Positions 1-12,322 of a DNA stretch of 64,000 nt are shown here, in pieces. The translations under genes were made by a program, and so were the position numbers. A model generated the notes under the pieces. The model had not been told where the DNA came from. It saw only the letters and a list, made by a program, of their open reading frames with translations, and ran no database searches. The stretch is taken from positions 1 through 64,000 of the forward strand of contig JAURHD010000004.1 of assembly GCA_030833445.1 (NCBI GenBank), read 5' to 3'. Each line of letters begins with the position of its first letter. Position 1 is the first letter of the stretch. The stretch is from Cephaloticoccus sp. (GTDB lineage: Bacteria; Verrucomicrobiota; Verrucomicrobiia; Opitutales; Opitutaceae).

Positions 1-13
1 TTTACCTTTCATG

Positions 14-39
14 GTCTGGGTCCTTTCTGGGGCCCAGAC
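14..39. terminator. possible hairpin at window edge
   Basis: GTCTGGG at 14-20 pairs perfectly with CCCAGAC at 33-39 around a 12-nt loop. No T-run follows on the plus strand, so it is a weak terminator candidate for a gene lying left of the window. Bases 60-331 hold nothing else I can support; a 61-codon frame there has no RBS or recognisable content. Confidence 0.25.
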
Positions 40-331
40 TAACATCAAAGGTGGCTCAAAATAGCGAGGTCAGGTCAGTGACTTTAATAAGCAGTTATGC
101 GTATTGGCTTTATACGGGAACTCCCTAAGGTGCTGCCGTTCAGATTCTGACCTAATCTAAGCATGTTGTTAGTGATAATCATTCTGGTATTGTTGAGTGC
201 CCTCGTGGCGACCGATCCCGATTCTCCGGGAGGCGGTCAATGAGGGTGGCGTCTTAGCGTGCGCTCCGCGCTCCGCATCATCTGCACAAGCTACTGGTCA
301 ACAACAGATTAAATTGCGAGAAACTGGGGTC

Positions 332-1594
332 TCAGAGCGGATTGACCGCCGGTCGCAGTTTCAAAGTCAGCAGAATAAGTAGCCCCGCCGCAAAGAAGCC
401 GGCATTGGCCAGCACGGCGACTTGGTAACCGTGATAGGCCGCGATCCAGCCGAAGACCGGTTGACCGATCACGGCGGCCAGTTTGCCGAAAAAGCCCCAG
501 TAGCCGAAGAATTCCCCGGCGCGATTCATCGGGGTCAACATGGCCACCACGGCCCGGGCCCCCGATTGGAGTGAACCCATCGCACTGCCCGCCAGCACCC
601 CAATAATATAGAACTCCATCTTGGTCGTGCAGAGCGCCGCCCAGACGCATACGGCGATCCATTGCACCAATGACAGGGCCAAGGCAAAACGAGGTCCGAC
701 CTTATCCTGCATCACCCCAAACCCATAGGCCCCGGCCACCCCGGCGAGCTGAAGGACCACAAACAGTTTGATGATCTCCGTCTGCGTCATCCCGAGCACC
801 TGAATCGCAAATACCGACGCAAACGCCACAATCGCGGTCAGCCCGGCCATAAACAGGAGCATGGCGCCGAAAAAGATCATGAGGGGGCGATGCTGCGGCA
901 ATTCCCGCACCATCTGCTGGAGCTGACCCCAACCCAGTCGCCAATAGGACTCATGATTGGCGAGTTCCCTTCGCCGGGCGCGTTCGCGCAGCATCAGGGT
1001 GGGCAGACTGGCCAATAGGAAAAACATCCCGGTCATCACAAAGGTCCACGGCACCCGCCCCGCCCCGCTGTTAATGATCACTAGAGCCAACACTAGGCTG
1101 AGCAAACCGCCGAGGTAGCCGAAACTCCAGCCGTAGCCGGAAATGCGGCCCACATTTTCCGGCGTGCTGATCTCCGGCAGAAAACTCGCGCAGAGATTTT
1201 CTCCCAAGGAAAACGCGATGTTGGCCATGATCACCAACCCAAGGGCCAGCCAGATGTCACCCGCCCCGGTATAATAGAGTGCCATCGTGGCCACCGAGCA
1301 GACGACCGCCGAACCCATGAGATAAACTTTCTTGCGCGCCGTGACATCTGCGAGCGCCCCAATCAACGGCGAGACCAAGATCACGATCAATTGCGAGACG
1401 GCTAGCGCGGTGCCCCACCAACCAGGACCACGGGAATCGCCCTCGGCCACGACGCCGACAAAGTAGGCGGAAAAAACGACCGTGATGATGATCGTGGTGA
1501 AGGCGGAATTAGCAAAATCGTAGCAACACCAACCAAATATCTCCCGGGGCCGGGCTGGTGGCGGGTCAAAAGGGGAAACAGTAGAGTTCCGCAC
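332..1594 (-). CDS. MFS transporter, Atg22/UMF1 family
   Basis: A 420-residue polytopic inner-membrane protein with about 12 hydrophobic segments. The N-terminus carries the YDFANSAF signature typical of Atg22/UMF1-type major facilitator proteins, followed by a loop with DVTARKK between segments 2 and 3, as in MFS motif A. Substrates of bacterial members are mostly unknown; small solutes or amino acids are guesses from the yeast vacuolar effluxer. The start is GTG (CAC at 1592-1594 on the plus strand); no later Met precedes the first membrane segment. It is transcribed divergently from the lipid operon, with about 156 bp between the two starts. Full length for the family, no defects seen. Confidence 0.85.
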   Translation of the reverse strand: MRNSTVSPFDPPPARPREIFGWCCYDFANSAFTTIIITVVFSAYFVGVVAEGDSRGPGWWGTALAVSQLIVILVSPLIGALADVTARKKVYLMGSAVVCSVATMALYYTGAGDIWLALGLVIMANIAFSLGENLCASFLPEISTPENVGRISGYGWSFGYLGGLLSLVLALVIINSGAGRVPWTFVMTGMFFLLASLPTLMLRERARRRELANHESYWRLGWGQLQQMVRELPQHRPLMIFFGAMLLFMAGLTAIVAFASVFAIQVLGMTQTEIIKLFVVLQLAGVAGAYGFGVMQDKVGPRFALALSLVQWIAVCVWAALCTTKMEFYIIGVLAGSAMGSLQSGARAVVAMLTPMNRAGEFFGYWGFFGKLAAVIGQPVFGWIAAYHGYQVAVLANAGFFAAGLLILLTLKLRPAVNPL

Positions 1595-1750
1595 GATTTA
1601 GGATAATCTACCGCAGGCTCCTGATGGCAAGCGCGTTGCACGTCTGGATTGCGTCCAAGGAACCCAGTTGCACGTTACTTGACTGTAATTAACGAAAACT
1701 CCGCTTGCACGCGCCTCCGATGCGGGGTTCCCTGGGGGCGACGTTTGCCC

Positions 1751-2944
1751 ATGACATCATCTGCAAATAAACCTTCCCGCACGCTCTTAAGCCGTCTGCT
1801 CACGCCTTTGGTGCAATGGGTGGATTCGGATCATTGCCCGGATGGCGCTGAAAAAATGCGCAACGAGCCTGATCGCGTGGATTGGGTCCGCGTGATGCCC
1901 TTTGTGTTTCTACACGCCGGCTGCCTAGGGGTGATTTGGGTAGGCGCCAGTTCGTTTGCCGTCTGGTCCGCTGTCGCGCTCTACTTTATCCGCATGTTTG
2001 CGGTCACCGGGGTGCACCACCGCTATTTCTCGCACAAAACCTACAGCACGTCCCGCTTCGGCCAGTTCCTGTTGGCAATCTTTGCCGGCACCACCGTGCA
2101 ACGAGGCTCACTTTGGTGGGCCTATCATCACCGCCATCACCACAAACACAGTGACGAAGCGGAAGATGCCCACTCTCCGCACGTCCACGGTTTCTGGTGG
2201 TCGCACATTGGCTGGATCACGAGTCGGCGGAATTTTCCCACCGATTACAGCAAGATCAAGGACCTCGCGAAATATCCCGAGCTCGTGCTGTTAAACCGGT
2301 TCGACCTCGTGGTGCCGATTCTCTTTGCCACGAGTATTTTCGGACTGGGTCAGCTCCTCGCCGCTTACGCACCCGGCCTCGGCACCAACGGCTGGCAGAT
2401 GCTGGTGTGGGGCTTTTTCATCAGCACCACCTTTCTGTTTCACGGCACCGGCTGCATCAATTCCATGGCGCACCTGATGGGACGGCGGCGATTCAAGACG
2501 TCGGACGATTCGCGCAACAGTGCGATCCTCGCGTTTATCACCCTTGGCGAGGGATGGCACAACAACCACCACCGCTACCAAAGTTCCACGCGTAATGGTT
2601 TCTATTGGTGGGAAATCGATCCCACTTATTACGGGTTGAAACTGCTTTCATTGACCGGATTCATCCATGGGTTGAAGCCGGTCCCGGCCAGCATCCTCGA
2701 AGAAGGCGCCCATGCTGATCATCATGCTTCAGTGGTAGCTGCCCAAAAATCCGCCATTGCCCATCCGCATTACACTTCGCTGCGTCGCGCCATGCCGACT
2801 GCCGCGGCCATCGCGGTGGCCACGGCCACGGCCTCACCGGCCGCCATGCCACAAAGAAAAGTTGATCCGGCGGTGCACAAGGACGTGACCGAATTGGCCC
2901 ACGAACTGAAGGCCAAGACCAGCGATAATCCGCCGGCGATTTGA
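1751..2944 (+). CDS. acyl-CoA / acyl-lipid desaturase (membrane di-iron)
   Basis: A 397-residue integral-membrane fatty acid desaturase of the stearoyl-CoA delta-9 type, which would introduce a double bond into a saturated acyl chain using O2 and an electron donor. The three histidine boxes that bind the di-iron centre are present: HHRYFSH at residues 89-95, HHRHHHKH from about 126, and HNNHH at 270-274, separated by paired hydrophobic segments. The frame is open back to 1649, but the ATG at 1751 (MTSSANK) fits the family best. The last ~60 residues are a low-complexity Ala-rich tail that probably is not catalytic. It stands 46 bp ahead of the FAD oxidoreductase gene and likely heads the lipid operon, supplying the unsaturated substrate for the methyltransferases downstream. 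Confidence 0.9.
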   Translation: MTSSANKPSRTLLSRLLTPLVQWVDSDHCPDGAEKMRNEPDRVDWVRVMPFVFLHAGCLGVIWVGASSFAVWSAVALYFIRMFAVTGVHHRYFSHKTYSTSRFGQFLLAIFAGTTVQRGSLWWAYHHRHHHKHSDEAEDAHSPHVHGFWWSHIGWITSRRNFPTDYSKIKDLAKYPELVLLNRFDLVVPILFATSIFGLGQLLAAYAPGLGTNGWQMLVWGFFISTTFLFHGTGCINSMAHLMGRRRFKTSDDSRNSAILAFITLGEGWHNNHHRYQSSTRNGFYWWEIDPTYYGLKLLSLTGFIHGLKPVPASILEEGAHADHHASVVAAQKSAIAHPHYTSLRRAMPTAAAIAVATATASPAAMPQRKVDPAVHKDVTELAHELKAKTSDNPPAI

Positions 2945-2990
2945 ATCCAAATGGCCTGTTGGGCCGTATCATGGGCAAAGCTACATACCC

Positions 2991-4313
2991 ATGACAAAAA
3001 CCGCCATCATCGGCACGGGCATTGCCGGTCTCGGTTGCGCGCATTACCTGCACGCCACTGACGAGATCACCCTGTTTGAACAAAACTGCCACATAGGCGG
3101 ACATACCAACACGGTCACGGCGCGCGAACCAGTCAGTGGCCGCGAACTCCCGATCGATACCGGGTTCATGGTCTTCAACAAGGTGACCTATCCTCTGCTC
3201 ACCCGGCTGTTCGACGAATTGAAGGTGCCGATCAAGCCGACCAACATGTCCTTTAGTGTGCGGCACGTGGATTGCGGCATCGAGTTTTGCGGCTCGTCGC
3301 TCAACCACTTGTTTGCCCAGCGGAAGAATCTGTTCCGGCCGCGGTTTTACCGCATGCTGCATGCGATCAGCCGCTTCAACCGCGAGGCGGTGCAAGCCCT
3401 GAGCGATCCGGCCATTCAGGAAATCACACTCGGCGACTACGTGCAGGCCCGCGGCTACGGGGAGGACTTTTTAAAACTCTACCTGACGCCAATGAGTTCG
3501 GCGGTCTGGAGCACCCCGCCGGATCTGATGTTGCAGTTTCCCGCGGCCAAGCTGCTGCGCTTTTTTCACAACCATGGTTTTCTCGGCCTGCACACGCAGC
3601 ACCCGTGGTGGACGGTGGACGGCGGCGCGCGCGAGTATGTGCTGCGCCTGACCAAACCTTGGCAGGATCGCATCCGCACCGGCATCGGGGCCACGCGGAT
3701 CGAACGCGAAAGCGCCGGGGTCAAGGTGCACACGACTAACGGCGAGGTGGAGAAATTCGATCGGGTGATTCTGGCCTGTCATGGTGATCAGGCCCTGCGC
3801 CTGTTGGACGCACCCACTTATGCTGAGCAGGCCGTTTTGCGGGAGTTTCGATATCTGCCCAATGTCGCCACCCTGCACACGGACCGCACGGTAATGCCGC
3901 GCACGCGTCTCGCTTGGTCGAGTTGGAACTACGAAGTAAATCACACCCCCGACGAACAACCGTCCACCGCGACGCACTATTGGATGAATTCTCTGCAGGG
4001 CGTATCGGATCGCGAAGACTATTTCGTCTCCATCAACCGGCCCGAAGCGATCAACCCGGCCAAGGTCCTGCGTCGGATCAATTACGAGCATCCGCTCTTC
4101 AGTGTCGGTGCCATCCGGGCGCAAAATGCGATTCCCCGGTTGAACGCATCCGCCACGGGCACGACTGAAACTTATTTTGCCGGGGCCTGGCAGCGCTACG
4201 GCTTTCATGAAGACGGCCTCTTCAGCGCCCATCGCCTGTGCGAACAATTGCTGGGGCGTGATCCCTGGCCGTCGCAGTCGACCGCCGCACTCACCCCTCA
4301 GACCGTCCAGTGA
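2991..4313 (+). CDS. FAD-dependent amine-oxidase-like oxidoreductase (COG2907 type)
   Basis: A 440-residue flavoprotein with a dinucleotide-binding fold at the extreme N-terminus (IIGTGIAGLG, residues 6-15), then the FEQNCHIGGHTNT segment that contacts the FAD ribose and phosphate. Proteins of this group (predicted NAD/FAD-binding, COG2907) sit beside DUF1365 and cyclopropane-synthase genes in many bacteria, exactly as here. A Rhodobacter furan-fatty-acid pathway uses a desaturase called UfaD in a comparable setting, but whether this protein is its orthologue cannot be told from sequence inspection. Likely acts on membrane acyl chains or on an intermediate made by the neighbouring methyltransferase. 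The DUF1365 gene starts 45 bp after its stop. Confidence 0.85.
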   Translation: MTKTAIIGTGIAGLGCAHYLHATDEITLFEQNCHIGGHTNTVTAREPVSGRELPIDTGFMVFNKVTYPLLTRLFDELKVPIKPTNMSFSVRHVDCGIEFCGSSLNHLFAQRKNLFRPRFYRMLHAISRFNREAVQALSDPAIQEITLGDYVQARGYGEDFLKLYLTPMSSAVWSTPPDLMLQFPAAKLLRFFHNHGFLGLHTQHPWWTVDGGAREYVLRLTKPWQDRIRTGIGATRIERESAGVKVHTTNGEVEKFDRVILACHGDQALRLLDAPTYAEQAVLREFRYLPNVATLHTDRTVMPRTRLAWSSWNYEVNHTPDEQPSTATHYWMNSLQGVSDREDYFVSINRPEAINPAKVLRRINYEHPLFSVGAIRAQNAIPRLNASATGTTETYFAGAWQRYGFHEDGLFSAHRLCEQLLGRDPWPSQSTAALTPQTVQ

Positions 4314-4358
4314 ACCGTTCCGCGGATTACCGGTCGGTGTTCATGTCCAACCCAGATC

Positions 4359-5222
4359 ATGCGCTCCCAAATCTATGAATGTCAGGTCAGGCACGCCCGC
4401 TTTGCCCCCAAAGCGCATGCCTTCGCCTATCGGATATTCATGTTCGCGCTCGATCTCGATGAATTGGAAGAGCTGCACACCAAACTCCCCTTCTTCTCGC
4501 TCAATCGTCGCAACCTCTATTCGTTTCACGAACGGGATTTTCTCCCTATCGGCGAGAAAAAGCATGGTGTCTCTCCGGACGAACCCGTCCCGCCCGCCGC
4601 CAAGCTCACTCCGTCCGGTCTCAAGGAGCGCGTGGTCGCCTATCTCGACACCCACGGCATCGACCTGACCGGCGGACGGGTGCTGCTCGTTACGCTGCCG
4701 CGAATCCTCGGTTATCTGTTCAATCCCGTATCGTTCTACTTTTGCTATGACCGGCACGGCACCCCGGTGGCCGCCATCGCCGAAGTGACCAACACGTTTC
4801 GCGAAATGAAACCGTTCCTGATTGCGTCCTCAGTGACCGAAACCGGCACCACCACTTTTCAAGCGCGTCAGCCCAAACATTTCTACGTCTCGCCCTATTC
4901 CGATGTGGATGTCGCCTTTGATTTCAAGCTGCGCATCCCGGACCAAAACCTCTCCGTGCAAATCGATGACTACACCGACGGCGAACGCACCTTTACCAGT
5001 AGTCTCACCGGCCCAAGCCGTGCGCTGACCGGAGGCAGGCTGCTTTGGTATGGCATCAAATATCCCCTGCTGACGCTCCAGATCATCGGACTGATTCACT
5101 GGCACGCCTTGCTTCTGTGGCTAAAACGCATTCCGTGGTTTGCCAAGGCCGCGCGGGCGGACGCACAACGCGATCTCTACCGTCCTCACGAGTCCATTCG
5201 CCACTCCAACGACGCCGTATGA
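4359..5222 (+). CDS. DUF1365 family protein
   Basis: A 287-residue DUF1365 (COG3496) protein. Family hallmarks visible are the opening IYECQVRHARF, the central FNPVSFYFCYD motif, and EVTNTF followed by a KHFYVSPY segment. A hydrophobic stretch near residues 240-260 suggests membrane association. The biochemical role of the family is not established; its constant companions are the COG2907 flavoprotein and a cyclopropane-fatty-acid-synthase-like methyltransferase, so a role in acyl-chain modification is inferred. Its TGA (5220-5222) overlaps the ATG of the next gene (5219-5221), giving an ATGA junction that suggests translational coupling. Confidence 0.88.
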   Translation: MRSQIYECQVRHARFAPKAHAFAYRIFMFALDLDELEELHTKLPFFSLNRRNLYSFHERDFLPIGEKKHGVSPDEPVPPAAKLTPSGLKERVVAYLDTHGIDLTGGRVLLVTLPRILGYLFNPVSFYFCYDRHGTPVAAIAEVTNTFREMKPFLIASSVTETGTTTFQARQPKHFYVSPYSDVDVAFDFKLRIPDQNLSVQIDDYTDGERTFTSSLTGPSRALTGGRLLWYGIKYPLLTLQIIGLIHWHALLLWLKRIPWFAKAARADAQRDLYRPHESIRHSNDAV

Positions 5223-6511
5223 ACCACTCTACTACTCGCGCCGAATCGGTCGCACCCAATCCAACCAAACCCTCCTTCTACCAAGCATCCGTCTTGAACG
5301 CGTTTCGGGCGATGCCGCTGGGGCGCATGAAAATCGAATTGCCCGGCGGCGAAACCTTGATGCTGGGAGCGGACGCCGAGAACACGCTAACCACTCTCCC
5401 GCTGGAGATTCCCGCGGAGGCCGCGATCCGCATTCGTCGCGTCGCATTTTTCAAAAAGTGTGTGCTGGCCGGTGACATCGGGTTTGCTGAATCCTTCATC
5501 GATGGCGATTGGGATACGCCCAACCTGACGGCGGTCATCGCTTGGTTCATTCAAAATCACGAACATGCCCCGAGTCTCTCCGGTTCGGCCCGGGCCAAGA
5601 ACGGGGCGCTAAACCTGCTGCGCTGGGCCAACCGCATCGGTCATTTGTTGCGACCGAACAACCGCACCACCGCGCAGCGCAACATCAGCGAACACTACGA
5701 TCTCTCCAACGACTTCTTTGCCCTCTGGCTGGATCCCAGCATGATGTATTCGTCGGCCAAATGGGCGCAGCCCAATTTCACGCTGGAAGAAGCACAGCGG
5801 GAAAAGAACGACGCCCTATGTCGCCGGCTCCGTCTGCAACCCACTGACCACGTGCTCGAAATCGGCACCGGCTGGGGCGGCTGGTCACTCCACGCCGCCA
5901 AAAACTACGGCTGCCGCATCACCACCGTGACGATCTCACGCCAACAACTCGAGCTGGCGGAAAAACGCATCGCCGCCGCCGGTTTGAGCGACCGGATCAA
6001 GGTCGAATTCTGCGACTACCGCGACATCCAAGGCTCCTTCGACAAGATCGTCTCCATCGAAATGATGGAAGCTATCGGCCACCGCTACCTGCCGGATTTC
6101 GCCGACACCCTGGGCCGGGTGCTCAAACGTGACGGCCTGATCGCGTTGCAATTCATCACTTGTCCCGACGCCCGCTATGACTCCTTCCGTCAGGGCGTGG
6201 ATTTTATCCAGAAACATATTTTCCCGGGTTCGCTGTTGCTGTCGCTTAACCGCGTGAACACCCAGCTGACTCGCGCCGGGAATTTCTGGCTGCACGAGAT
6301 TGAAGATCTGGGCCACGACTACGCCCGCACCCTGCGCACCTGGCAAGAGGTCTTCATGAGCAAGCTCACCGAAGTGCGCGGACTGGGGTTTGATGATCGC
6401 TTCATTCGCAAATGGAGCTACTACCTTTGCTACTGCGAGGCGGCCTTCGCCCTGCGCAACATCTCTGTGGTCCAGACCCTGCACACCCGCTCCAACAATC
6501 TCGCCCTCTAA
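5219..6511 (+). CDS. cyclopropane-fatty-acyl-phospholipid synthase-like methyltransferase 1
   Basis: A 430-residue SAM-dependent methyltransferase of the CFA synthase family, which transfers a methyl(ene) group to double bonds of phospholipid acyl chains at the membrane surface. It has the N-terminal lipid-binding region, NISEHYDLSNDFF before the catalytic domain, and the SAM motif LEIGTGWGG at about 213-221, then VSIEMMEAIG, the family's catalytic-loop signature. The start is the ATG at 5219, overlapping the DUF1365 stop; the frame is open further upstream only because it runs through the neighbour. In related clusters this position is held by a methyltransferase that makes a methylated unsaturated chain (UfaM-like) rather than a cyclopropane ring; sequence alone does not decide. 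Confidence 0.9.
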   Translation: MNHSTTRAESVAPNPTKPSFYQASVLNAFRAMPLGRMKIELPGGETLMLGADAENTLTTLPLEIPAEAAIRIRRVAFFKKCVLAGDIGFAESFIDGDWDTPNLTAVIAWFIQNHEHAPSLSGSARAKNGALNLLRWANRIGHLLRPNNRTTAQRNISEHYDLSNDFFALWLDPSMMYSSAKWAQPNFTLEEAQREKNDALCRRLRLQPTDHVLEIGTGWGGWSLHAAKNYGCRITTVTISRQQLELAEKRIAAAGLSDRIKVEFCDYRDIQGSFDKIVSIEMMEAIGHRYLPDFADTLGRVLKRDGLIALQFITCPDARYDSFRQGVDFIQKHIFPGSLLLSLNRVNTQLTRAGNFWLHEIEDLGHDYARTLRTWQEVFMSKLTEVRGLGFDDRFIRKWSYYLCYCEAAFALRNISVVQTLHTRSNNLAL

Positions 6512-6514
6512 GGT

Positions 6515-6928
6515 ATGCTCTGGTTTCTGCGCATTCTCTTCGGATTCGTCATCCTCACCATGCTAGCCGTGACGAGCTGGGCCAGCGGGCAGTGTGCCCT
6601 GTTCTCGATTCCGCGCGAGGTATTCACCCACCCTTGGTTCATCGCCACGTTATTCGATGCCTACTGGGCCTTCATTACCTTTTATGTGTGGGTCGCGTGG
6701 AAAGAACAAAGCCCCGCTGCGCGCGTGCTGTGGTTCGTCGCCATTATTCTCTGGGGCAATCTAGCCATGGCGCTTTATATGTTGGTTGAAGTATTTCGCA
6801 TCCGGCAAAGCAGCCAACTCGGCGAAGTCTTCTCGACGCGCCGGCCCGGAAAAATCGGGCTGCCCGCCAGCCTTACGCTGTTGGGGGCCATCGTTTATCT
6901 GCTCGGAGCCAAAGCACTGTTCGCGTGA
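6515..6928 (+). CDS. DUF1475-like small membrane protein
   Basis: A 137-residue protein with about four hydrophobic segments and a conserved-looking W-rich core (FDAYWAFITFYVWVAWKE). Size, topology and position next to a CFA-type methyltransferase match the DUF1475 family; no enzymatic residues can be assigned. It starts three bases after the methyltransferase stop and its TGA overlaps the GTG of the next gene, so it is clearly inside the operon. Likely an accessory membrane component of the lipid-modifying system. Confidence 0.7.
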   Translation: MLWFLRILFGFVILTMLAVTSWASGQCALFSIPREVFTHPWFIATLFDAYWAFITFYVWVAWKEQSPAARVLWFVAIILWGNLAMALYMLVEVFRIRQSSQLGEVFSTRRPGKIGLPASLTLLGAIVYLLGAKALFA

Positions 6929-7425
6929 TACCCCCGGCCCCAGTCCGAAGTTTTTGGCGGCGGCGTATTGCGGATCCCATCATCACGCAACTGACCCAGG
7001 GCACCAGTCCGGAAAAAATAGCCCTGACCTTGGCGGTGGGCGTCGCCGCAGGTCTGTTTCCCTTTCTCGGCTTTACCACCCTACTCTGCTTCCTCGTCGC
7101 CTTGGCGCTCCGTCTCAACCAACCGATCATTCACGTAATCAACCAGGTGTTGTGGCCGATCCATCTGACCATGGTGCTGGTTTATATCCGCATGGGCGCG
7201 TGGATCTATGGCGCCACCGCCCTGCCCTTCGATCCCAGTGAGGTCACATATCTCTTCATGCATTCCCAGCGCGAATTCTGGTCGCGTTTCGGTCTGATGG
7301 GTCTGCACGCGCTCACGGCTTGGCTCATCACGGTGCCGATCATCGTGGGAGGCCTCTATTTTCCTCTGCTGCACGTGTTGCGGCGCTTCATCACCACGCA
7401 TCCCCCCAAGCCAAGTTCCCCATGA
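6925..7425 (+). CDS. DUF2062 domain protein
   Basis: A 166-residue protein of the DUF2062 family. The segment ISPEKIAL-like (here TSPEKIALTLAVGVAAGLFP) followed by a hydrophobic stretch and LRLNQPIIHVINQVL is characteristic. Two or three membrane segments are predicted by eye. Function of the family is unknown, though members often lie near lipid or glycan synthesis genes. Start is GTG at 6925, sharing GTGA with the preceding stop; its own TGA overlaps the next ATG (7422-7425). Both junctions support the GTG choice. Confidence 0.75.
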   Translation: MIPPAPVRSFWRRRIADPIITQLTQGTSPEKIALTLAVGVAAGLFPFLGFTTLLCFLVALALRLNQPIIHVINQVLWPIHLTMVLVYIRMGAWIYGATALPFDPSEVTYLFMHSQREFWSRFGLMGLHALTAWLITVPIIVGGLYFPLLHVLRRFITTHPPKPSSP

Positions 7426-8219
7426 CCACGCTTGCCCTTATCCTCCTCGCCACCGCTGCGCTGTGTGTGGTTTTCGCCGGTGTTTTTCTGTTGGCCAAAT
7501 TGATCAACAATTACGGGGCCGTCGACATCGCCTGGTCCTATGCCTTCGCGGGCTTGGCCGCCTTCTATGCCATCTGCGGTCAAGGCTGGCCGGTCCGTCG
7601 CGCGTTGATCGGCGCAATGGTCTGCCTGTGGAGCCTGCGGTTGGGTTCGCATCTCCTGCGTCGCGTCGCCGGGCATCACCCGGAGGAGGACGGACGTTAT
7701 CAGCAGTTGCGTCAGGACTGGTCGGAAAACTTCCTGCCCAAGATGTTCGGCTTTTTCCAAATGCAGGCCGTATCGGTCATTTATCTGGGCATTCCATTTC
7801 TCCTGATTGCGCAAAATCCCGCCCGGCATCTGGAACTCTTGGAGATTGCCGGCCTTATCATTTGGTTGCTGGCGCTGTCCGGCGAAGGACTGGCCGATAC
7901 CCAACTGAATGCCTTCAAGCGCAACCCCGATAATCGCGGCAAGGTTTGCGACATCGGTCTGTGGCGCTACAGCCGTCACCCCAACTATTTTTTCGAGTGG
8001 TTGATCTGGGTCGGCTATTTCGTTTTTGCCCTCGCCTCGCCCTGGGGCTGGCTCGCGATTTTAAGTCCCTTGAGCATCCTTTGGCTGCTGCTGCGCGTAA
8101 CAGGTATACCCATGACCGAAGAACAAAATATCCGCAGTAAAGGAGACGCCTACCGGCGCTACCAGCGGACCACAAGTGCCTTTGTGCCCTGGATTCCGAA
8201 ACGCCCGCACCATGATTGA
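7422..8219 (+). CDS. DUF1295 / steroid 5-alpha-reductase-like membrane protein
   Basis: A 265-residue polytopic protein of the DUF1295 family, related to 3-oxo-5-alpha-steroid 4-dehydrogenase and isoprenylcysteine methyltransferase folds. The C-terminal half has the signature GLWRYSRHPNYFFEW, then a late TEEQNIRSKGDAYRRYQ segment, which in this superfamily forms the cofactor-binding end. A reductase acting on an unsaturated acyl chain is a reasonable inference but unproven. The ATG at 7422 overlaps the DUF2062 stop, and its TGA overlaps the second methyltransferase start region (ATG at 8212). Confidence 0.85.
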   Translation: MTTLALILLATAALCVVFAGVFLLAKLINNYGAVDIAWSYAFAGLAAFYAICGQGWPVRRALIGAMVCLWSLRLGSHLLRRVAGHHPEEDGRYQQLRQDWSENFLPKMFGFFQMQAVSVIYLGIPFLLIAQNPARHLELLEIAGLIIWLLALSGEGLADTQLNAFKRNPDNRGKVCDIGLWRYSRHPNYFFEWLIWVGYFVFALASPWGWLAILSPLSILWLLLRVTGIPMTEEQNIRSKGDAYRRYQRTTSAFVPWIPKRPHHD

Positions 8220-9222
8220 TTTGCTGCTCGAAAAGAACCTCCTGCCAGACTGGCTGGTGCGGGTAGGCATTCGCCGCCTGCTGGCCCAACGCATTCGTGA
8301 TGAAGACGCGACCTACGACCGCACTGCCTATGTGGCGGATTTAAAGACGCGTTCACTGGCCGAGCAAACCACCGCCGCCAATGAACAGCACTACGAAGTG
8401 CCGACGCCGTTTTACCAATACTGCCTCGGGCCGCGCCTGAAATACTCCGGGTGTTACTATCCACAAGGAACGGAGAGCCTCGCCGAGGCCGAGGAACACA
8501 TGCTCGCCCTTTATGCCGAACGGGCGCAACTCGCCGACGGCCAGCACATTTTGGAACTCGGTTGCGGCTGGGGCTCACTTTGTCTCTACAACGCGGCAAA
8601 ATTCCCCCGCGCCAAAATCACCGCGATCTCCAACTCCCGCACCCAAAAGGAATTCATCGACACCGAGGCCCGCAAACGTGGCCTCACCAACTTGCGCATC
8701 ATCACCTGTGACATCAATGAATTCGACATCACGCCGGCGCAATTCGACCGCGTGGTTTCCGTGGAGATGTTTGAGCACCTGAAAAATTACGAGCGCCTCT
8801 TTGCCCACATCGCTCGCTGGCTCAAACCGGGCGGCCTGCTTTTCACCCACATCTTTACGCACAGCCGGTTTAGTTATCACTTCGTGGCGCGGGACAGCAC
8901 GGATTGGATGAGTCGTTATTTCTTCACCGGCGGTCAAATGCCGGCGCATGATTTGTTACCGCAATTTCAAACCGATCTGAAACTCGTCGAAGACTGGAAA
9001 GTAAACGGCCGGCACTATCAGCAGACAGCGGAACACTGGTTGCAGAATATGGACAAGCATCGCGAGGAAATCCTGCCGCTCTTCCGCGATACCTATGGCC
9101 CAGATCAGGCGACCAAATGGTGGGCTTATTGGCGCACCTTTTACATGTCCTGTGCGGAACTCTGGGGTTACCGCAACGGAGAGGAGTGGCTCGTGAGCCA
9201 TTACCTTTTCCGCAAGCCGTGA
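8212..9222 (+). CDS. cyclopropane-fatty-acyl-phospholipid synthase-like methyltransferase 2
   Basis: A 336-residue SAM-dependent methyltransferase, shorter than its operon paralogue because it lacks the large N-terminal lipid-binding region. The SAM-binding motif LELGCGWGS is at about 114-122, preceded by an EQHYEVPTPFY segment equivalent to the HYDL region of CFA synthases, and VVSVEMFEHLKNYE matches the catalytic loop. It overlaps the DUF1295 stop by eight bases, so it is the last coupled gene of the operon. Two different CFA-type enzymes in one operon suggest two successive methylations; Rhodopseudomonas uses a second methylase, FufM, to make dimethyl furan fatty acids, a possible but untested parallel. 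Confidence 0.88.
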   Translation: MIDLLLEKNLLPDWLVRVGIRRLLAQRIRDEDATYDRTAYVADLKTRSLAEQTTAANEQHYEVPTPFYQYCLGPRLKYSGCYYPQGTESLAEAEEHMLALYAERAQLADGQHILELGCGWGSLCLYNAAKFPRAKITAISNSRTQKEFIDTEARKRGLTNLRIITCDINEFDITPAQFDRVVSVEMFEHLKNYERLFAHIARWLKPGGLLFTHIFTHSRFSYHFVARDSTDWMSRYFFTGGQMPAHDLLPQFQTDLKLVEDWKVNGRHYQQTAEHWLQNMDKHREEILPLFRDTYGPDQATKWWAYWRTFYMSCAELWGYRNGEEWLVSHYLFRKP

Positions 9223-9229
9223 ACCGTTA

Positions 9230-9661
9230 TCAGTAGTTCGGCCAGATGCCCGGTGTGACCAACTCCGCGACATTTCCGTCCGGATCATGAAAGTAGAGAC
9301 TCCGGCCGCCGCGATCCCACCGGGTCTCACTGATTATCTCCACGCCGTGTGCCACCAACCGTGAACGCCAAACCGGATAGTCAGCTTCCCCAATGCCAAA
9401 GGCAATATGCAGCGGACCGTGTCCATCGTGCGGTGGAATGTTGCCACCCGGGGTGACCACGGTTTCGAGGGTTGCACCCCGTTTGAACAATAGGAGCACC
9501 CGCGCCTGCCCGGCATCGAACGATTGAAATCGTTCGGGATTACCCGTCATGGGGGATAGTCCGAGCACCTCGGTGTAAAACGCGATGGCTCGGGGGAGAT
9601 CCTCCACATAGAGGATGGTTTCAACCACGCCATGGATGCGAGGTGCCGGTGCGTTGGACAT
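9230..9661 (-). CDS. VOC (glyoxalase-like) protein
   Basis: A 143-residue vicinal-oxygen-chelate domain protein. It has paired beta-alpha-beta-beta-beta modules: HGVVETILYVEDLPRAIAFY at the N-terminus and GRSLYFHDPDGNVAELV near the end, where H and E residues would bind metal. Substrate unknown; members include dioxygenases, resistance proteins and isomerases. The start MSNAPAPRIHG (ATG complement ending at 9661) is chosen because the much longer open frame upstream is antisense to the TPR gene. It converges on the lipid operon with 7 bp between stops. Confidence 0.88.
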   Translation of the reverse strand: MSNAPAPRIHGVVETILYVEDLPRAIAFYTEVLGLSPMTGNPERFQSFDAGQARVLLLFKRGATLETVVTPGGNIPPHDGHGPLHIAFGIGEADYPVWRSRLVAHGVEIISETRWDRGGRSLYFHDPDGNVAELVTPGIWPNY

Positions 9662-9736
9662 ACCTGCACTTTGAGGCCACTGTGCCGGATTGCAATCCAT
9701 GCAACCAAGGCCACCTCCGGACCGTATCACCATTGC

Positions 9737-10489
9737 ATGAAATTCCTCCTGTTGAGTCTTTGCCTTGGCGTGGGTTTGCATCTCGCTCACGCGGCCGATG
9801 CAGACGCATTGATCAAGTCGGCGATCGCCGCCGAGGCTGCCTTCGATACGCAAAAGGCACTGGAACTGTTTCAGGCGGCGGATGCCGCACGACCCAACGA
9901 TCCGTTTATCCTCCAAAAAATTTCCAAGCAGTATTCCGACTCGACCATCGAGGACACCGCACCGGAGGAAAAGAAACGGCTCATGGAGCTGGCCCTTGAT
10001 TACGCCCAACGCAGTCACGAGCTCGAACCAACTAATGCCGTCCACACCCTTTCGATTGCGATCTGTTACGGCAAACTGGGGCTCTACAGCGATGTGCGCA
10101 CCAAGATCAAATATGTCCGCCTGACCAAGGAGTTTGCCGACCGGGCCCTCCAGCAGGATCCAAACTACGACTGGGCCTTCCATGTGCTGGGACGCTGGCA
10201 ATGCGAAGTAGCCAAGCTCGGTGGCACCAAGCGCTTCATGATCGGTCTGCTCTTCGGCGGTTTGCCGGATGCTTCGACGGAGGAAGGCATCCGCCTGCTG
10301 CAATGCTCGGTCGAACTCGCGCCCAACAATCCCTCTCATCAAATCGAATTGGGCTTTGCTTACCTGGCGGATCATCAGCCCGCCGCCGCCCGACAAGCTT
10401 TCGCGGCCGGCCTGGCGTTGCCCAATAGCGAGAAATACGACGAGGTTTCCAAAGAGCGTGCCCGTGAAGCCTTGAAGAATATCCAGTAA
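9737..10489 (+). CDS. exported TPR protein
   Basis: A 250-residue protein with a signal peptide (MKFLLLSLCLGVGLHLAHAA) and several tetratricopeptide-like helices, for example at residues ~25-60, ~85-130 and ~190-235, with the pattern A..LFQAADAARPND and QIELGFAYLAD. The spacing resembles TPR proteins annotated as regulators of microtubule dynamics in metagenomes, although no such role applies in bacteria. Likely a periplasmic scaffold of unknown partner. The frame is open back to 9632 but the ATG at 9737 precedes the signal peptide directly. Confidence 0.75.
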   Translation: MKFLLLSLCLGVGLHLAHAADADALIKSAIAAEAAFDTQKALELFQAADAARPNDPFILQKISKQYSDSTIEDTAPEEKKRLMELALDYAQRSHELEPTNAVHTLSIAICYGKLGLYSDVRTKIKYVRLTKEFADRALQQDPNYDWAFHVLGRWQCEVAKLGGTKRFMIGLLFGGLPDASTEEGIRLLQCSVELAPNNPSHQIELGFAYLADHQPAAARQAFAAGLALPNSEKYDEVSKERAREALKNIQ

Positions 10490-10566
10490 AGAGCGTCCGG
10501 GCTGGGAGAAAGTTTCAGCATTCAAAGGAACTCACCGCTCTCACACGAATCCCAAGGGTTTCCGCC

Positions 10567-11093
10567 GTGAGACCTCTACCCCTCATGTTCTTGTTTTCCG
10601 CCACCGGACTTGCTGCGTGCATGGCGGAAGAATCCGATCCGGAGACCCACCAAACTCCAAAACTCTCTGCCGTGATCAGGGAAGTCCTGAAAGCATCGCT
10701 ACCCAAATACGATGCTTCGATGGCCACGGTGGAATCCGCCGAAGAACGATTACCCGAAATGCGTCCGGAGGAAATCCCCGAGGCGACGTCCTGATGATGC
10801 CCGACTACATCGTCTTTGAGGACAAATTCCGGGATCTCTCCGAATTCGAAATGCTGACGCCCAAGGGTAAAGCTGAACTTGCCCTTAAACGGTATCCCGG
10901 ACTCAAAATAGGGCCGTTTGCATCCCTAAACACGGGCGTCGGTGTAGCTATGCTGGCGGAAGAAGAGCGCATTCGAAAACTCAAACGCACCGACGAGCTC
11001 ATAGACTTGGCCGGGACCCTCGATCCACAGAAGATCAGGTCTCTTAAGAAATTAATGTATGATGTGCGTATGAAATCCCTTTCAGGGAAATAG
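10567..11093 (+). pseudogene. small lipoprotein gene, probably split by a frameshift
   Basis: Two adjacent frames look like one gene. The first (10567-10794, GTG start, 75 codons) begins with a lipoprotein signal ending LAAC and stops in PEEIPEATS. The second overlaps its TGA (ATG at 10794) and runs to 11093 (99 codons) with FRDLSEFEMLTPKGKAELAL. Read without the break, the upstream part of the second frame gives DVLMMPDYIVFED, a natural continuation of the acidic, Pro-rich stretch. Adding one G in the GG at about 10781-10783 would join them. Alternatives are two coupled genes or an assembly error. Function unknown. Confidence 0.5.
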
Positions 11094-11116
11094 GCGTTAG
11101 CCCTGACTGATTCGCA

Positions 11117-12322
11117 TTAACCAGTATTTTTCCCGGCAGCCCAGTGCATCAAACCCCCGCGCGTAGCCGGAAATCCCGCCCCGCTGAGCAAGGCGAAATC
11201 TACATCTGCTGGCGTCTTGATCACCCCTTCATCGAGACAACGTTGAGCCTCCGCGACCATGACAGCCATTAATCGTCCGGCTATCTCCGTCGCTGTGGGT
11301 GTGGACGACATCGGGCCGACATCCATCAGTTTCGCAGCCTCATTGAGGGACGCCTCACGACCGACATAAGCGTAGAAGCCGCTGCTCGCGCCATTCTTGC
11401 GGCCCTTAAATCCGGCCGCCAACAAGCGGGTGCAAATCGTGGCGCGCTGGAAACGCGCCGTGAAATAATGCGCCATCTCGCCGAAGATAAAATCGGTTAC
11501 ATCAACACCAACCTCATCGATCAGCCGCATCGGTCCCATCGGCCAACCCCACTCACGCATCGCGTTATCTATCGTCTCGGTGGGCACGCCTTCTTCCCAT
11601 AATCGGCACGCTTCGTTGAGATAAAAGAACAGGACACGCGTTACCAGAAATCCCGGGGACGAGCGGCAGATCACCGGCGATTTCTTCAACTGTTTAACAA
11701 AGCCCAGTGCGGCCGTGGCGGTGGCTTCACTGGTCTGCCGCCCCATGATCAGCTCAACCAGCGGCATGCGGCCTACGGGATTGAAAAAATGGATCCCCAG
11801 CGTCCGCTCCGGCTGCGGCACGTTACCAAATAGTTCCTCAATCGGCAGGGCTGAGGTATTCGATGCCAGCAGCACAAGGGGTCCCACGTTGGTCGCGATT
11901 TCGGCAAATAATTTCTGCTTGGCCGCAACGTCTTCGACGATCGCCTCAATCACCAGATCGCAATCGGAAAACCCGTCCCAGCCGGTCGTCGTTACGATGC
12001 GCCCCATGGCCTGTTCGGCCTCATCTGCTGTTTGTTGCCCTAGTTTGACCCCGCCGTCGAACAAGCCACGGATCACGGTCAACCCCCGCGCAATGAATTC
12101 CGGCTGCACATCGCGCAACACGACCTGCAATCCGCATGCCGCGCACCAGTGCGCGATGCCCGAGCCCATGACGCCCGCACCGATCACTCCGACTTTTTTG
12201 ATCGTTCGTGAGTGGGAATTACCTGCCTCAGGTGGTGGGAAACTCCAACCGGCCAATGTTCGCGCAGCGGCCTCGGTTTTTAACTGCTCTGCGTAAGCGG
12301 TGGGGGTATCGGGTGAACTCAT
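11117..12322 (-). CDS. 3-hydroxyacyl-CoA dehydrogenase
   Basis: A 401-residue NAD-dependent 3-hydroxyacyl-CoA dehydrogenase, oxidising 3-hydroxyacyl-CoA to 3-ketoacyl-CoA in beta-oxidation or a related pathway. The Rossmann motif VGVIGAGVMGSG spans about 44-55, the catalytic His lies in GIHFFNPVGRMPLVE near 176-190, and two C-terminal 3HCDH domains follow (SPGFLVTRVLFFYLNEA; then a second copy after ~290). It resembles the dehydrogenase half of FadB/FadJ without the enoyl-CoA hydratase domain. Start MSSPDTP (12322) is preferred; the longer frame is antisense to the divergent gene's leader. No partner thiolase or hydratase is in the window. Confidence 0.88.
   Translation of the reverse strand: MSSPDTPTAYAEQLKTEAAARTLAGWSFPPPEAGNSHSRTIKKVGVIGAGVMGSGIAHWCAACGLQVVLRDVQPEFIARGLTVIRGLFDGGVKLGQQTADEAEQAMGRIVTTTGWDGFSDCDLVIEAIVEDVAAKQKLFAEIATNVGPLVLLASNTSALPIEELFGNVPQPERTLGIHFFNPVGRMPLVELIMGRQTSEATATAALGFVKQLKKSPVICRSSPGFLVTRVLFFYLNEACRLWEEGVPTETIDNAMREWGWPMGPMRLIDEVGVDVTDFIFGEMAHYFTARFQRATICTRLLAAGFKGRKNGASSGFYAYVGREASLNEAAKLMDVGPMSSTPTATEIAGRLMAVMVAEAQRCLDEGVIKTPADVDFALLSGAGFPATRGGLMHWAAGKNTG

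What the first reader, a model, noticed from the sequence alone, without database searches (positions are those of the whole stretch)
1751..9222. Eight-gene coupled operon with two CFA-type methyltransferases, a desaturase and a flavoprotein
Seen: desaturase, COG2907-type flavoprotein, DUF1365, CFA-like methyltransferase, DUF1475-like, DUF2062, DUF1295 and a second, shorter CFA-like methyltransferase, with stop/start overlaps at most junctions. Known: parts of this set accompany furan-fatty-acid and branched-chain acyl modification (UfaM, UfaD, UfaO; FufM in Rhodopseudomonas) and singlet-oxygen regulons. Inference: this bacterium makes an unusual methylated, perhaps furan or reduced branched, membrane fatty acid. 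The added DUF1475, DUF2062 and DUF1295 genes are not part of the described pathway. No sigma-E/ChrR pair was seen.
Basis: partly seen in the sequence, partly recalled or inferred. Interest (0 to 1): 0.68.

Follow-up and report, generated by a model that had tools for sequence, protein, structure and literature searches.

The report
Operon for dimethyl furan fatty acids
This bacterium carries, in one compact gene block, what looks like the whole known recipe for furan fatty acids (membrane fats that react with light-induced oxygen damage), together with a probable reductase that keeps company with the recipe in many bacteria but whose job is unexplained.

Summary
The eight-gene block at 1751-9222 is real; five of seven junctions overlap or nearly touch. 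Four genes match the published furan-fatty-acid pathway: UfaD-like (2991-4313), UfaO-like DUF1365 (4359-5222), UfaM-like (5219-6511), and 8212-9222, which is a FufM-type enzyme, not a cyclopropane synthase: it is 50% identical to the one FufM-type protein of a Rhodopseudomonas palustris strain. In R. palustris fufM lies away from ufaM/D/O; here they share an operon. In 387 genomes of the phylum (unnamed by the tools), all 72 with a FufM-type protein have DUF1365; in 57 of 72 loci at least one of UfaD/UfaO/UfaM lies nearby. The unexplained partner is DUF1295 (7422-8219): 78 of 79 genomes with a strong match have DUF1365, and it precedes the FufM-type gene in three Rhodopseudomonas genomes and all five plasmid loci opened. 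Several conserved residues match the NADPH site of steroid 5-alpha-reductase. Cereibacter johrii has UfaM/UfaD/UfaO without DUF1295, so it is probably not a core synthesis step. The furan inference is well supported but chemically untested. No ChrR was found.

The parts
1751..2944 (+). acyl desaturase (PF00487); probably supplies the mono-unsaturated acyl substrate
   Evidence: Pfam 64.5 bits; 50% identical to the desaturase heading the same gene order on an Acinetobacter plasmid; in 35 of 72 loci
2991..4313 (+). UfaD-like FAD desaturase/dehydrogenase
   Evidence: 42% identical over 426 aa to the UfaD-type protein of Cereibacter johrii, 38% to that of R. palustris XCP
4359..5222 (+). UfaO-like DUF1365 protein (furan-forming oxygenase family)
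   Evidence: PF07103 244 bits; 36% to the R. palustris XCP and 31% to the C. johrii protein
5219..6511 (+). UfaM-like acyl methyltransferase
   Evidence: 39% over 425 aa to C. johrii UfaM (293 bits) against 36% over 297 aa to R. palustris CFA (180 bits); groups with UfaM against CFA at 98/96, with a long-branch warning; ATG overlaps the DUF1365 stop by 4 bp
6515..6928 (+). DUF1475-like small membrane protein, function unknown
   Evidence: PF07343 32 bits, cut-off 22.3; in 31 of 387 genomes, 30 of them FufM-positive
6925..7425 (+). DUF2062 membrane protein, GTG start, function unknown
   Evidence: PF09835 52 bits; in 30 of 72 loci
7422..8219 (+). DUF1295 protein, probable NADPH-dependent ene-reductase of the steroid 5-alpha-reductase fold
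   Evidence: PF06966 241 bits and Steroid_dh 29.9 bits, cut-off 22.6; D159, N188, Y189 in 65 of 65 and E192 in 55 of 65, aligned to NADPH ligands of PbSRD5A
8212..9222 (+). FufM-type methyltransferase (second ring methyl)
   Evidence: 50% to the single FufM-type protein of R. palustris XCP; FufM-type clade of 79 rows set off from UfaM/CFA at 100/100
9737..10489 (+). TPR protein with a signal-peptide-like start, possible further member, here separated from the operon by an ORF on the other strand
   Evidence: relatives in 17 of 71 fetched loci; a separate clustering finds a TPR family just downstream of FufM in 17 loci, largely the same ones

Best explanation
The operon makes mono- and then dimethyl furan fatty acids on existing membrane phospholipids. 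Inferred route: the desaturase makes a mono-unsaturated acyl chain; UfaM (5219-6511) adds a methyl group from SAM with a shift of the double bond; UfaD (2991-4313) adds a conjugated double bond; UfaO (4359-5222) inserts oxygen from O2 and closes the furan ring; FufM (8212-9222) adds the second ring methyl. Shown here: the genes, their family placement and their linkage. Shown elsewhere (PMC7380195): the chemistry of UfaM, UfaD, UfaO and FufM in two alphaproteobacteria. Inferred: that these proteins do the same here, and that DUF1295 is an NADPH-dependent ene-reductase acting on a furan-acid-derived or related acyl chain. If the desaturase is a delta-9 enzyme, the product should be a positional isomer of 9D5, with the ring on C8-C11 (for example 7D5 or 7D7; my derivation).
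For: Identity to UfaD/UfaO/UfaM of R. palustris XCP and C. johrii. XCP has one FufM-type protein, 50% to CFA2, plus a UfaM beside UfaD/UfaO and a CFA; identities to C. johrii UfaM are 28% (FufM type) and 37% (CFA), near the 26% and 38% printed for RPA0924 and RPA3082 against R. sphaeroides UfaM. Tree: CFA2 in the FufM-type clade at 100/100. Co-occurrence: FufM type 72 of 72 and strong DUF1295 78 of 79 within the DUF1365 genomes. All five plasmid loci opened, of 296 records matched, hold UfaD, DUF1365, UfaM, DUF1295 and FufM together, the Acinetobacter one in the window's order minus DUF1475/DUF2062. UfaO and UfaM share one reading frame in 15 of 88 DUF1365 genomes (Pfam on two).
Against: No fatty acid was measured. 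31-42% identity for UfaD/UfaO/UfaM does not prove the same substrate. The UfaM-type H266-to-Q change (51 of 51 UfaM-type rows with a letter there, two gaps) does not exclude ring closure: cotton cyclopropane synthases carry Q there too (PMC3132707, passage; printed as Q737, I729 and Q734). In 15 of 72 loci none of UfaD/UfaO/UfaM lies in the fetched stretch. 16 of 88 DUF1365 genomes have no FufM type. The co-occurrence counts are not phylogenetically independent. No ChrR, so the usual singlet-oxygen regulator is missing.
Confidence: 0.8

Rival explanations
1. The operon stops short of a furan: UfaM-like plus reductase (DUF1295) make a saturated or unsaturated methyl-branched acid, as in 10-methyl acid pathways, and UfaO/UfaD have drifted to another step.
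For: DUF1295 has reductase-like NADPH residues; methyltransferase plus reductase is the known logic of 10-methylstearate (recalled).
Against: UfaO and UfaD are retained and physically linked, and the FufM type, whose known substrate is a furan acid, occurs only in genomes with DUF1365 (72 of 72).
Confidence: 0.1
2. CFA2 is an N-methyltransferase of a lipid head group or small amine, like plant coclaurine N-methyltransferase, and only happens to sit here.
For: Its best solved relative is coclaurine N-methyltransferase (263 bits).
Against: 50% identity to the single FufM-type protein of a R. palustris strain; in R. palustris CGA009 FufM was shown by deletion and in vitro to methylate a furan acid (PMC7380195, section 9). 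Constant company of the furan genes.
Confidence: 0.06
3. DUF1295 is a required step of furan synthesis, for example the missing reductant supply of UfaO.
For: 78 of 79 genomes with strong DUF1295 have DUF1365, and 9 of the 16 DUF1365 genomes without a FufM type also have it.
Against: C. johrii has UfaD, UfaO and UfaM but no DUF1295 match; fufM alone gave 9D5 in an R. sphaeroides chrR mutant (PMC7380195, section 9), though whether R. sphaeroides itself has DUF1295 was not tested; 10 of 88 DUF1365 genomes lack a strong DUF1295.
Confidence: 0.1
4. Ordinary cyclopropane operon: both methyltransferases make cyclopropane acids.
For: Both match the CMAS family; cotton enzymes described as cyclopropane synthases share the Q residue.
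Against: CFA1 groups with UfaM against CFA (98/96) and CFA2 with the FufM type (100/100); UfaD and UfaO have no known role in cyclopropane synthesis in bacteria (recalled).
Confidence: 0.05

Closest known systems
Furan fatty acid pathway UfaM/UfaD/UfaO of Rhodobacter sphaeroides and R. palustris (Lemke 2020, PMC7380195)
   Same: All three enzymes have counterparts here (31-42% identity to C. johrii and R. palustris XCP proteins); UfaD next to UfaO.
   Different: In R. sphaeroides ufaM (RSP2144) is apart from ufaD/ufaO (RSP1091/1090); here one operon, headed by a desaturase, with DUF1475, DUF2062, DUF1295 and a FufM type added; no ChrR in the genome.
FufM (RPA0924) of R. palustris
   Same: CFA2 is 50% identical to the only FufM-type protein of R. 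palustris XCP and in the same clade; both are preceded by an overlapping DUF1295 gene.
   Different: In Rhodopseudomonas the DUF1295-FufM pair lies at another locus than UfaD/O/M.
Steroid 5-alpha-reductase fold (PbSRD5A, SRD5A2), for DUF1295
   Same: NADPH ligands D163, N192, Y193, E196 of PbSRD5A align with D159, N188, Y189, E192; Steroid_dh matches above its Pfam cut-off.
   Different: Weak overall match (E 0.0017); N159 of PbSRD5A aligns with an invariant E155; the catalytic QEY motif could not be aligned; substrate unknown.
Singlet-oxygen gene set of Chlamydomonas (SAK1-dependent; PMC4067076)
   Same: CFA1, CFA2, DUF1365 and DUF1295 genes are in the table of singlet-oxygen-induced genes weakened in sak1 (passages).
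   Different: A eukaryotic gene set; no furan acid was mentioned in the passages I saw.

Membership tests
Methylated furan fatty acid pathway (UfaM/UfaD/UfaO) | UfaM-type acyl methyltransferase | tested here: met
   39% over 425 aa to C. johrii UfaM; groups with UfaM against CFA at 98/96, with a long-branch warning
Methylated furan fatty acid pathway (UfaM/UfaD/UfaO) | UfaD-type flavoprotein | tested here: met
   42% to the C. johrii, 38% to the R. palustris XCP protein
Methylated furan fatty acid pathway (UfaM/UfaD/UfaO) | UfaO (DUF1365) | tested here: met
   PF07103 244 bits; 31-36% to the reference proteins
Methylated furan fatty acid pathway (UfaM/UfaD/UfaO) | furan fatty acid in the membrane lipids | not testable with these tools
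   needs GC-MS
FufM (furan acid methylase) | orthology to R. palustris RPA0924 | tested here: met
   tested on strain XCP, not CGA009: single FufM-type protein, 50% identity, clade 100/100; its equation with RPA0924 rests on near-equal identities to UfaM
FufM (furan acid methylase) | methylates 9M5 furan acid | not testable with these tools
   needs an enzyme assay
SigmaE/ChrR (ECF11) regulon | ChrR anti-sigma factor in the genome | tested here: not met
   no TIGR02451 match in the own genome; the control rings in Caulobacter
Cyclopropane synthase (for 5219-6511) | bicarbonate ligands C139 and H266 of the E. coli enzyme | tested here: not met
   S and Q instead; not decisive, because cotton cyclopropane synthases also differ there
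SRD5A-type NADPH reductase (for DUF1295) | NADPH ligands D, N, Y, E on TM5-TM6 | tested here: met
   D, N and Y in 65 of 65 rows, E in 55 of 65 (Q 6, V 4)
SRD5A-type NADPH reductase (for DUF1295) | the rest of the NADPH ligand set (N159, R170, TM7, loops) | tested here: inconclusive
   N159 is E in 65 of 65, a mismatch; R170 is K or R in 62 of 65; TM7 and loop ligands lie outside the profile match
SRD5A-type NADPH reductase (for DUF1295) | QEY catalytic motif | tested here: inconclusive
   the profile match covers only about TM5-TM6; the single-sequence model was too poor to use (pTM 0.34)

The most novel reading that the evidence does not exclude
DUF1295 is a furan-acid repair or recycling enzyme. 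Singlet oxygen opens furan acids to an ene-dione, an alpha,beta-unsaturated ketone (recalled chemistry). The SRD5A fold reduces just this kind of double bond with NADPH. Reduction would give a saturated 1,4-dione, which can close back to a furan by loss of water (Paal-Knorr). The operon would then encode synthesis and regeneration of a membrane singlet-oxygen trap, which would explain why DUF1295 follows the pathway so closely yet appears dispensable for synthesis.
Probability: 0.15. Interest if true: 0.82.

Novelty: new variant of a known kind. Interest (0 to 1): 0.52.

Why it matters
It puts UfaM, UfaD, UfaO and FufM counterparts, whose chemistry is known from separate loci in two alphaproteobacteria, into one operon, and shows that the set recurs in many genomes of this phylum and on plasmids of three proteobacterial classes. 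It singles out DUF1295 as the unexplained partner of furan-acid metabolism; the same family is induced along with CFA and DUF1365 genes by singlet oxygen in a green alga. That makes the question 'what happens to furan acids after they are oxidised' directly testable with a compact gene set.

Tried and rejected
Structure of DUF1295: single-sequence AlphaFold gave pLDDT 58, pTM 0.34; no fold search was run on it.

Active-site residues as proof of UfaM over CFA: H266 is Q in 51 of 51 UfaM-type rows with a letter there (54 rows in all, among them two with a gap and one R. palustris CFA, which has H), but cotton cyclopropane synthases also carry Q, so dropped as proof.

DUF1475 and DUF2062 profiles against solved structures: no DUF1475 match at E up to 1; DUF2062 only weak matches (best E 0.025). 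PADLOC on DUF1295, DUF1475 and DUF2062: nothing. Rfam on 1-12000: nothing. Promoter and terminator scans: 4 promoter-like sites against 3.6 expected and 12 terminator-like against 9.7 expected, so uninformative. 16S in the own genome, to name the phylum: no match.

Literature: searches for DUF1365/CFA/DUF1295, DUF1295/DUF1475/DUF2062/methyltransferase, DUF1295/singlet oxygen/ChrR/cyclopropane (30 of 226 papers listed), furan fatty acid/Verrucomicrobi/UfaD/DUF1365 and COG3752/COG2907/COG3496 (none) listed no paper that, from its title, start of abstract and term counts, describes a DUF1295-FufM-UfaDOM linkage. This covers the open library only. PMC2579311 (core sigmaE regulon) is not held.

The RPA0923 question: the 2020 paper lists deletion strains of RPA0923 and of RPA0923/RPA0924; the passages shown for RPA0923 all lie in its gene-cloning section. 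That RPA0923 is the DUF1295 gene is my inference from strain XCP.
Full report
WHAT IS THERE. The block 1751-9222 holds eight ORFs on one strand. Pfam confirms desaturase, FAD amine-oxidase-like protein, DUF1365, CMAS, DUF1475, DUF2062, DUF1295 and a second CMAS. The spacings are +46, +45, -4, +3, -4, -4 and -8 bp, so the last six genes are translationally coupled or nearly so. Upstream is an MFS gene on the other strand (332-1594); downstream follows an ORF on the other strand whose end reads like a VOC (glyoxalase-type) protein by eye (not scanned), then a TPR gene (9737-10489).

THE TWO METHYLTRANSFERASES DIFFER. The first (5219-6511) is nearest, among solved structures, to E. coli cyclopropane synthase (171 bits), but it is closer to the UfaM of Cereibacter johrii (39% over 425 aa, 293 bits) than to the R. 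palustris CFA (36% over 297 aa, 180 bits), and it groups with UfaM against CFA at 98/96 (the program warns of long branches). The second (8212-9222) is nearest to coclaurine N-methyltransferase (263 bits) and only about 100 bits from CFA synthases. PMC10940516 (passages) reports that FufM is 37.87% identical to Arabidopsis AT4G33110 (LIME1).

TEST AGAINST FufM. To reach named reference genomes I scanned with a RuBisCO key and then searched five genomes: R. palustris XCP, three other Rhodopseudomonas and C. johrii. XCP has one FufM-type protein, 50% identical to CFA2 (355 bits); its next methyltransferase scores 94 bits. The UfaM of XCP lies beside UfaD and UfaO. Against C. johrii UfaM, the XCP FufM-type protein has 28% and the XCP CFA 37% identity (local alignments); the paper prints 26% and 38% for RPA0924 (FufM) and RPA3082 against R. 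sphaeroides UfaM (PMC7380195, section 9). R. rhenobacensis and C. johrii have no FufM-type protein (best 1.8e-25 and 1.1e-23). R. sphaeroides makes 9M5, and made 9D5 when given fufM. In the tree, 79 FufM-type rows, the window included, are split from four UfaM/CFA rows at 100/100; one row under 250 aa (L106) was left out. The proteobacterial rows fall at three places among deep branches whose order is not well supported.

LINKAGE IN THE PHYLUM. Of 387 genomes, 72 (own included) have a FufM-type protein at 283 bits or more, and the next tier lies at about 111 bits or less. I fetched 71 stretches for the other 71. Counted with the window, 57 of 72 hold at least one of UfaD, DUF1365 and UfaM in the fetched stretch, 42 hold all three, 38 hold all three plus DUF1295, 15 hold all eight families. 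DUF1295 is present in 57 and, on the same strand, ends within about -400 to +300 bp of the FufM start in 49. Several stretches end at contig ends. Across the 387 genomes DUF1365 occurs in 88, the FufM type in 72 (all within the 88), strong DUF1295 (over 130 bits) in 79 of the 96 genomes with any match, 78 of them within the 88. Fisher p-values are below 1e-60, but genomes are not independent. DUF1475 occurs in 31 of 387, 30 of them FufM-positive; two of the 31 lie below the cut-off, one of them the FufM-negative genome. In at least two genomes DUF1475 lies on another contig than FufM. Orders vary: the window's order, FufM-UfaD-DUF1365, desaturase-DUF1295-FufM-UfaD-DUF1365-UfaM and others. The set is patchy: two of the other three same-genus genomes drawn lack DUF1365.

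BEYOND THE PHYLUM. A protein search matched 296 plasmid records. I opened five, and all five (Burkholderia, Acinetobacter, Mesorhizobium, Rhizobium tropici, Cupriavidus) carry UfaD, DUF1365, UfaM, DUF1295 and FufM types together. Acinetobacter has desaturase-UfaD-DUF1365-UfaM-DUF1295-FufM, the window's order without DUF1475 and DUF2062. Mesorhizobium and R. tropici carry a sigma factor with ChrR beside the genes, Burkholderia a sigma factor with an anti-sigma factor.

FUSIONS. In 15 of the 88 DUF1365 genomes the DUF1365 and CMAS matches share one open frame (562-1179 aa, stop to stop; places compared). Pfam confirms both domains in the two I scanned. Arabidopsis AT3G23510 matches both UfaM and UfaD. 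The pathway thus seems to fuse different pairs of its enzymes in different lineages.

DUF1295. In the three Rhodopseudomonas genomes with a FufM-type gene, DUF1295 lies directly upstream, in at least two with a 4-bp overlap. PbSRD5A binds NADPH through N159, D163, R170, N192, Y193 and E196 among others (PMC7815742, passages). With a shift of five between chain and paper numbering, which I worked out by hand from the printed alignment, D163, N192, Y193 and E196 fall on D159, N188, Y189 and E192 of the window protein; these are D 65, N 65, Y 65 and E 55 of 65 rows. N159 is E in all 65, a mismatch. The methyltransferase relative 4a2n_B scores slightly better by sequence (E 0.0004 against 0.0017); in its printed alignment N is M and E is L, and the D position is not covered. 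Pfam Steroid_dh matches over its cut-off (29.9, cut-off 22.6), while PEMT (20.1, cut-off 25) and the isoprenylcysteine methyltransferase model (24.8, cut-off 160) do not reach theirs. I therefore read DUF1295 as a reductase rather than a methyltransferase. C. johrii has no DUF1295 match although it has UfaD/O/M, and 10 of 88 DUF1365 genomes lack a strong one, so it is unlikely to be needed for ring formation. Against a pathway-only role: among the control genomes, Lactococcus and Methanosarcina have DUF1295 without DUF1365, so the family as a whole is wider. In Chlamydomonas, CFA1, CFA2, DUF1365 and DUF1295 genes are induced by singlet oxygen in a SAK1-dependent way (PMC4067076, passages).

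SUBSTRATE AND REGULATION. No true FabA was found in the own genome (best 41.5 bits, cut-off 238), so the operon's desaturase may supply the double bond; other routes were not tested. If it is a delta-9 enzyme, the furan ring should sit on C8-C11, unlike 9M5 and 9D5 (my derivation from the published steps). No ChrR was found. ORF clusters whose representatives are an ECF sigma factor (8 loci) and a glutathione peroxidase (5 loci) recur in the 72 loci, which fits oxidative stress without naming this organism's regulator.

KNOWN AND NEW. Known: UfaM, UfaD, UfaO and FufM chemistry (PMC7380195: abstract, sections 4, 8, 9, 10, 18 and passages read) and the sigmaE/ChrR core regulon containing furan genes (PMC6852236, passages). 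New here, as far as the searches show: the pathway with the FufM type as one operon over this phylum and on plasmids, and the near-constant company of DUF1295.

Noticed in passing
L076:11579-14785 and L085:12475-15087, and 13 further genomes: DUF1365 (UfaO) and the UfaM-type methyltransferase share one reading frame in 15 of 88 DUF1365 genomes of the phylum (two scanned).
   Followed up: partly
window 9737-10489: A TPR protein with a signal-peptide-like start, related to genes in 17 of 71 fetched loci and, by clustering, usually just downstream of FufM; here separated from the operon by an ORF on the other strand that looks like a VOC protein by eye.
   Followed up: partly
L100:3596-4210, L090:6008-6571, L105:7992-8576, L100:4207-4767: Recurrent extra neighbours in more distant loci, named from one scanned representative each: SnoaL-like protein (13 loci), chalcone isomerase-like protein (12), ECF sigma factor (8), glutathione peroxidase (5); chalcone isomerase family genes also sit in the Burkholderia, Acinetobacter and Cupriavidus loci.
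   Followed up: partly
L107, L108, L109, L110, L111: The furan set rides on plasmids of Burkholderia and R. tropici (typed conjugative), Acinetobacter and Mesorhizobium (mobilizable) and Cupriavidus (non-mobilizable), so horizontal spread is plausible.
   Followed up: partly
L109:13561-13971, L110:6721-7140: DUF2177 genes lie in the two rhizobial loci, and a DUF2177 gene is also in the Chlamydomonas SAK1 table.
   Followed up: no
window 6515-6928: The DUF1475-like protein has invariant P-W, D-x-Y and G-N positions in 18 aligned rows; DUF1475 is otherwise met in maize and rice transcriptome papers (search listing).
   Followed up: no
own genome G000: No 16S rRNA match was found in the 72 contigs held (97.75% complete by the tool's figure), so the organism could not be placed that way.
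   Followed up: no
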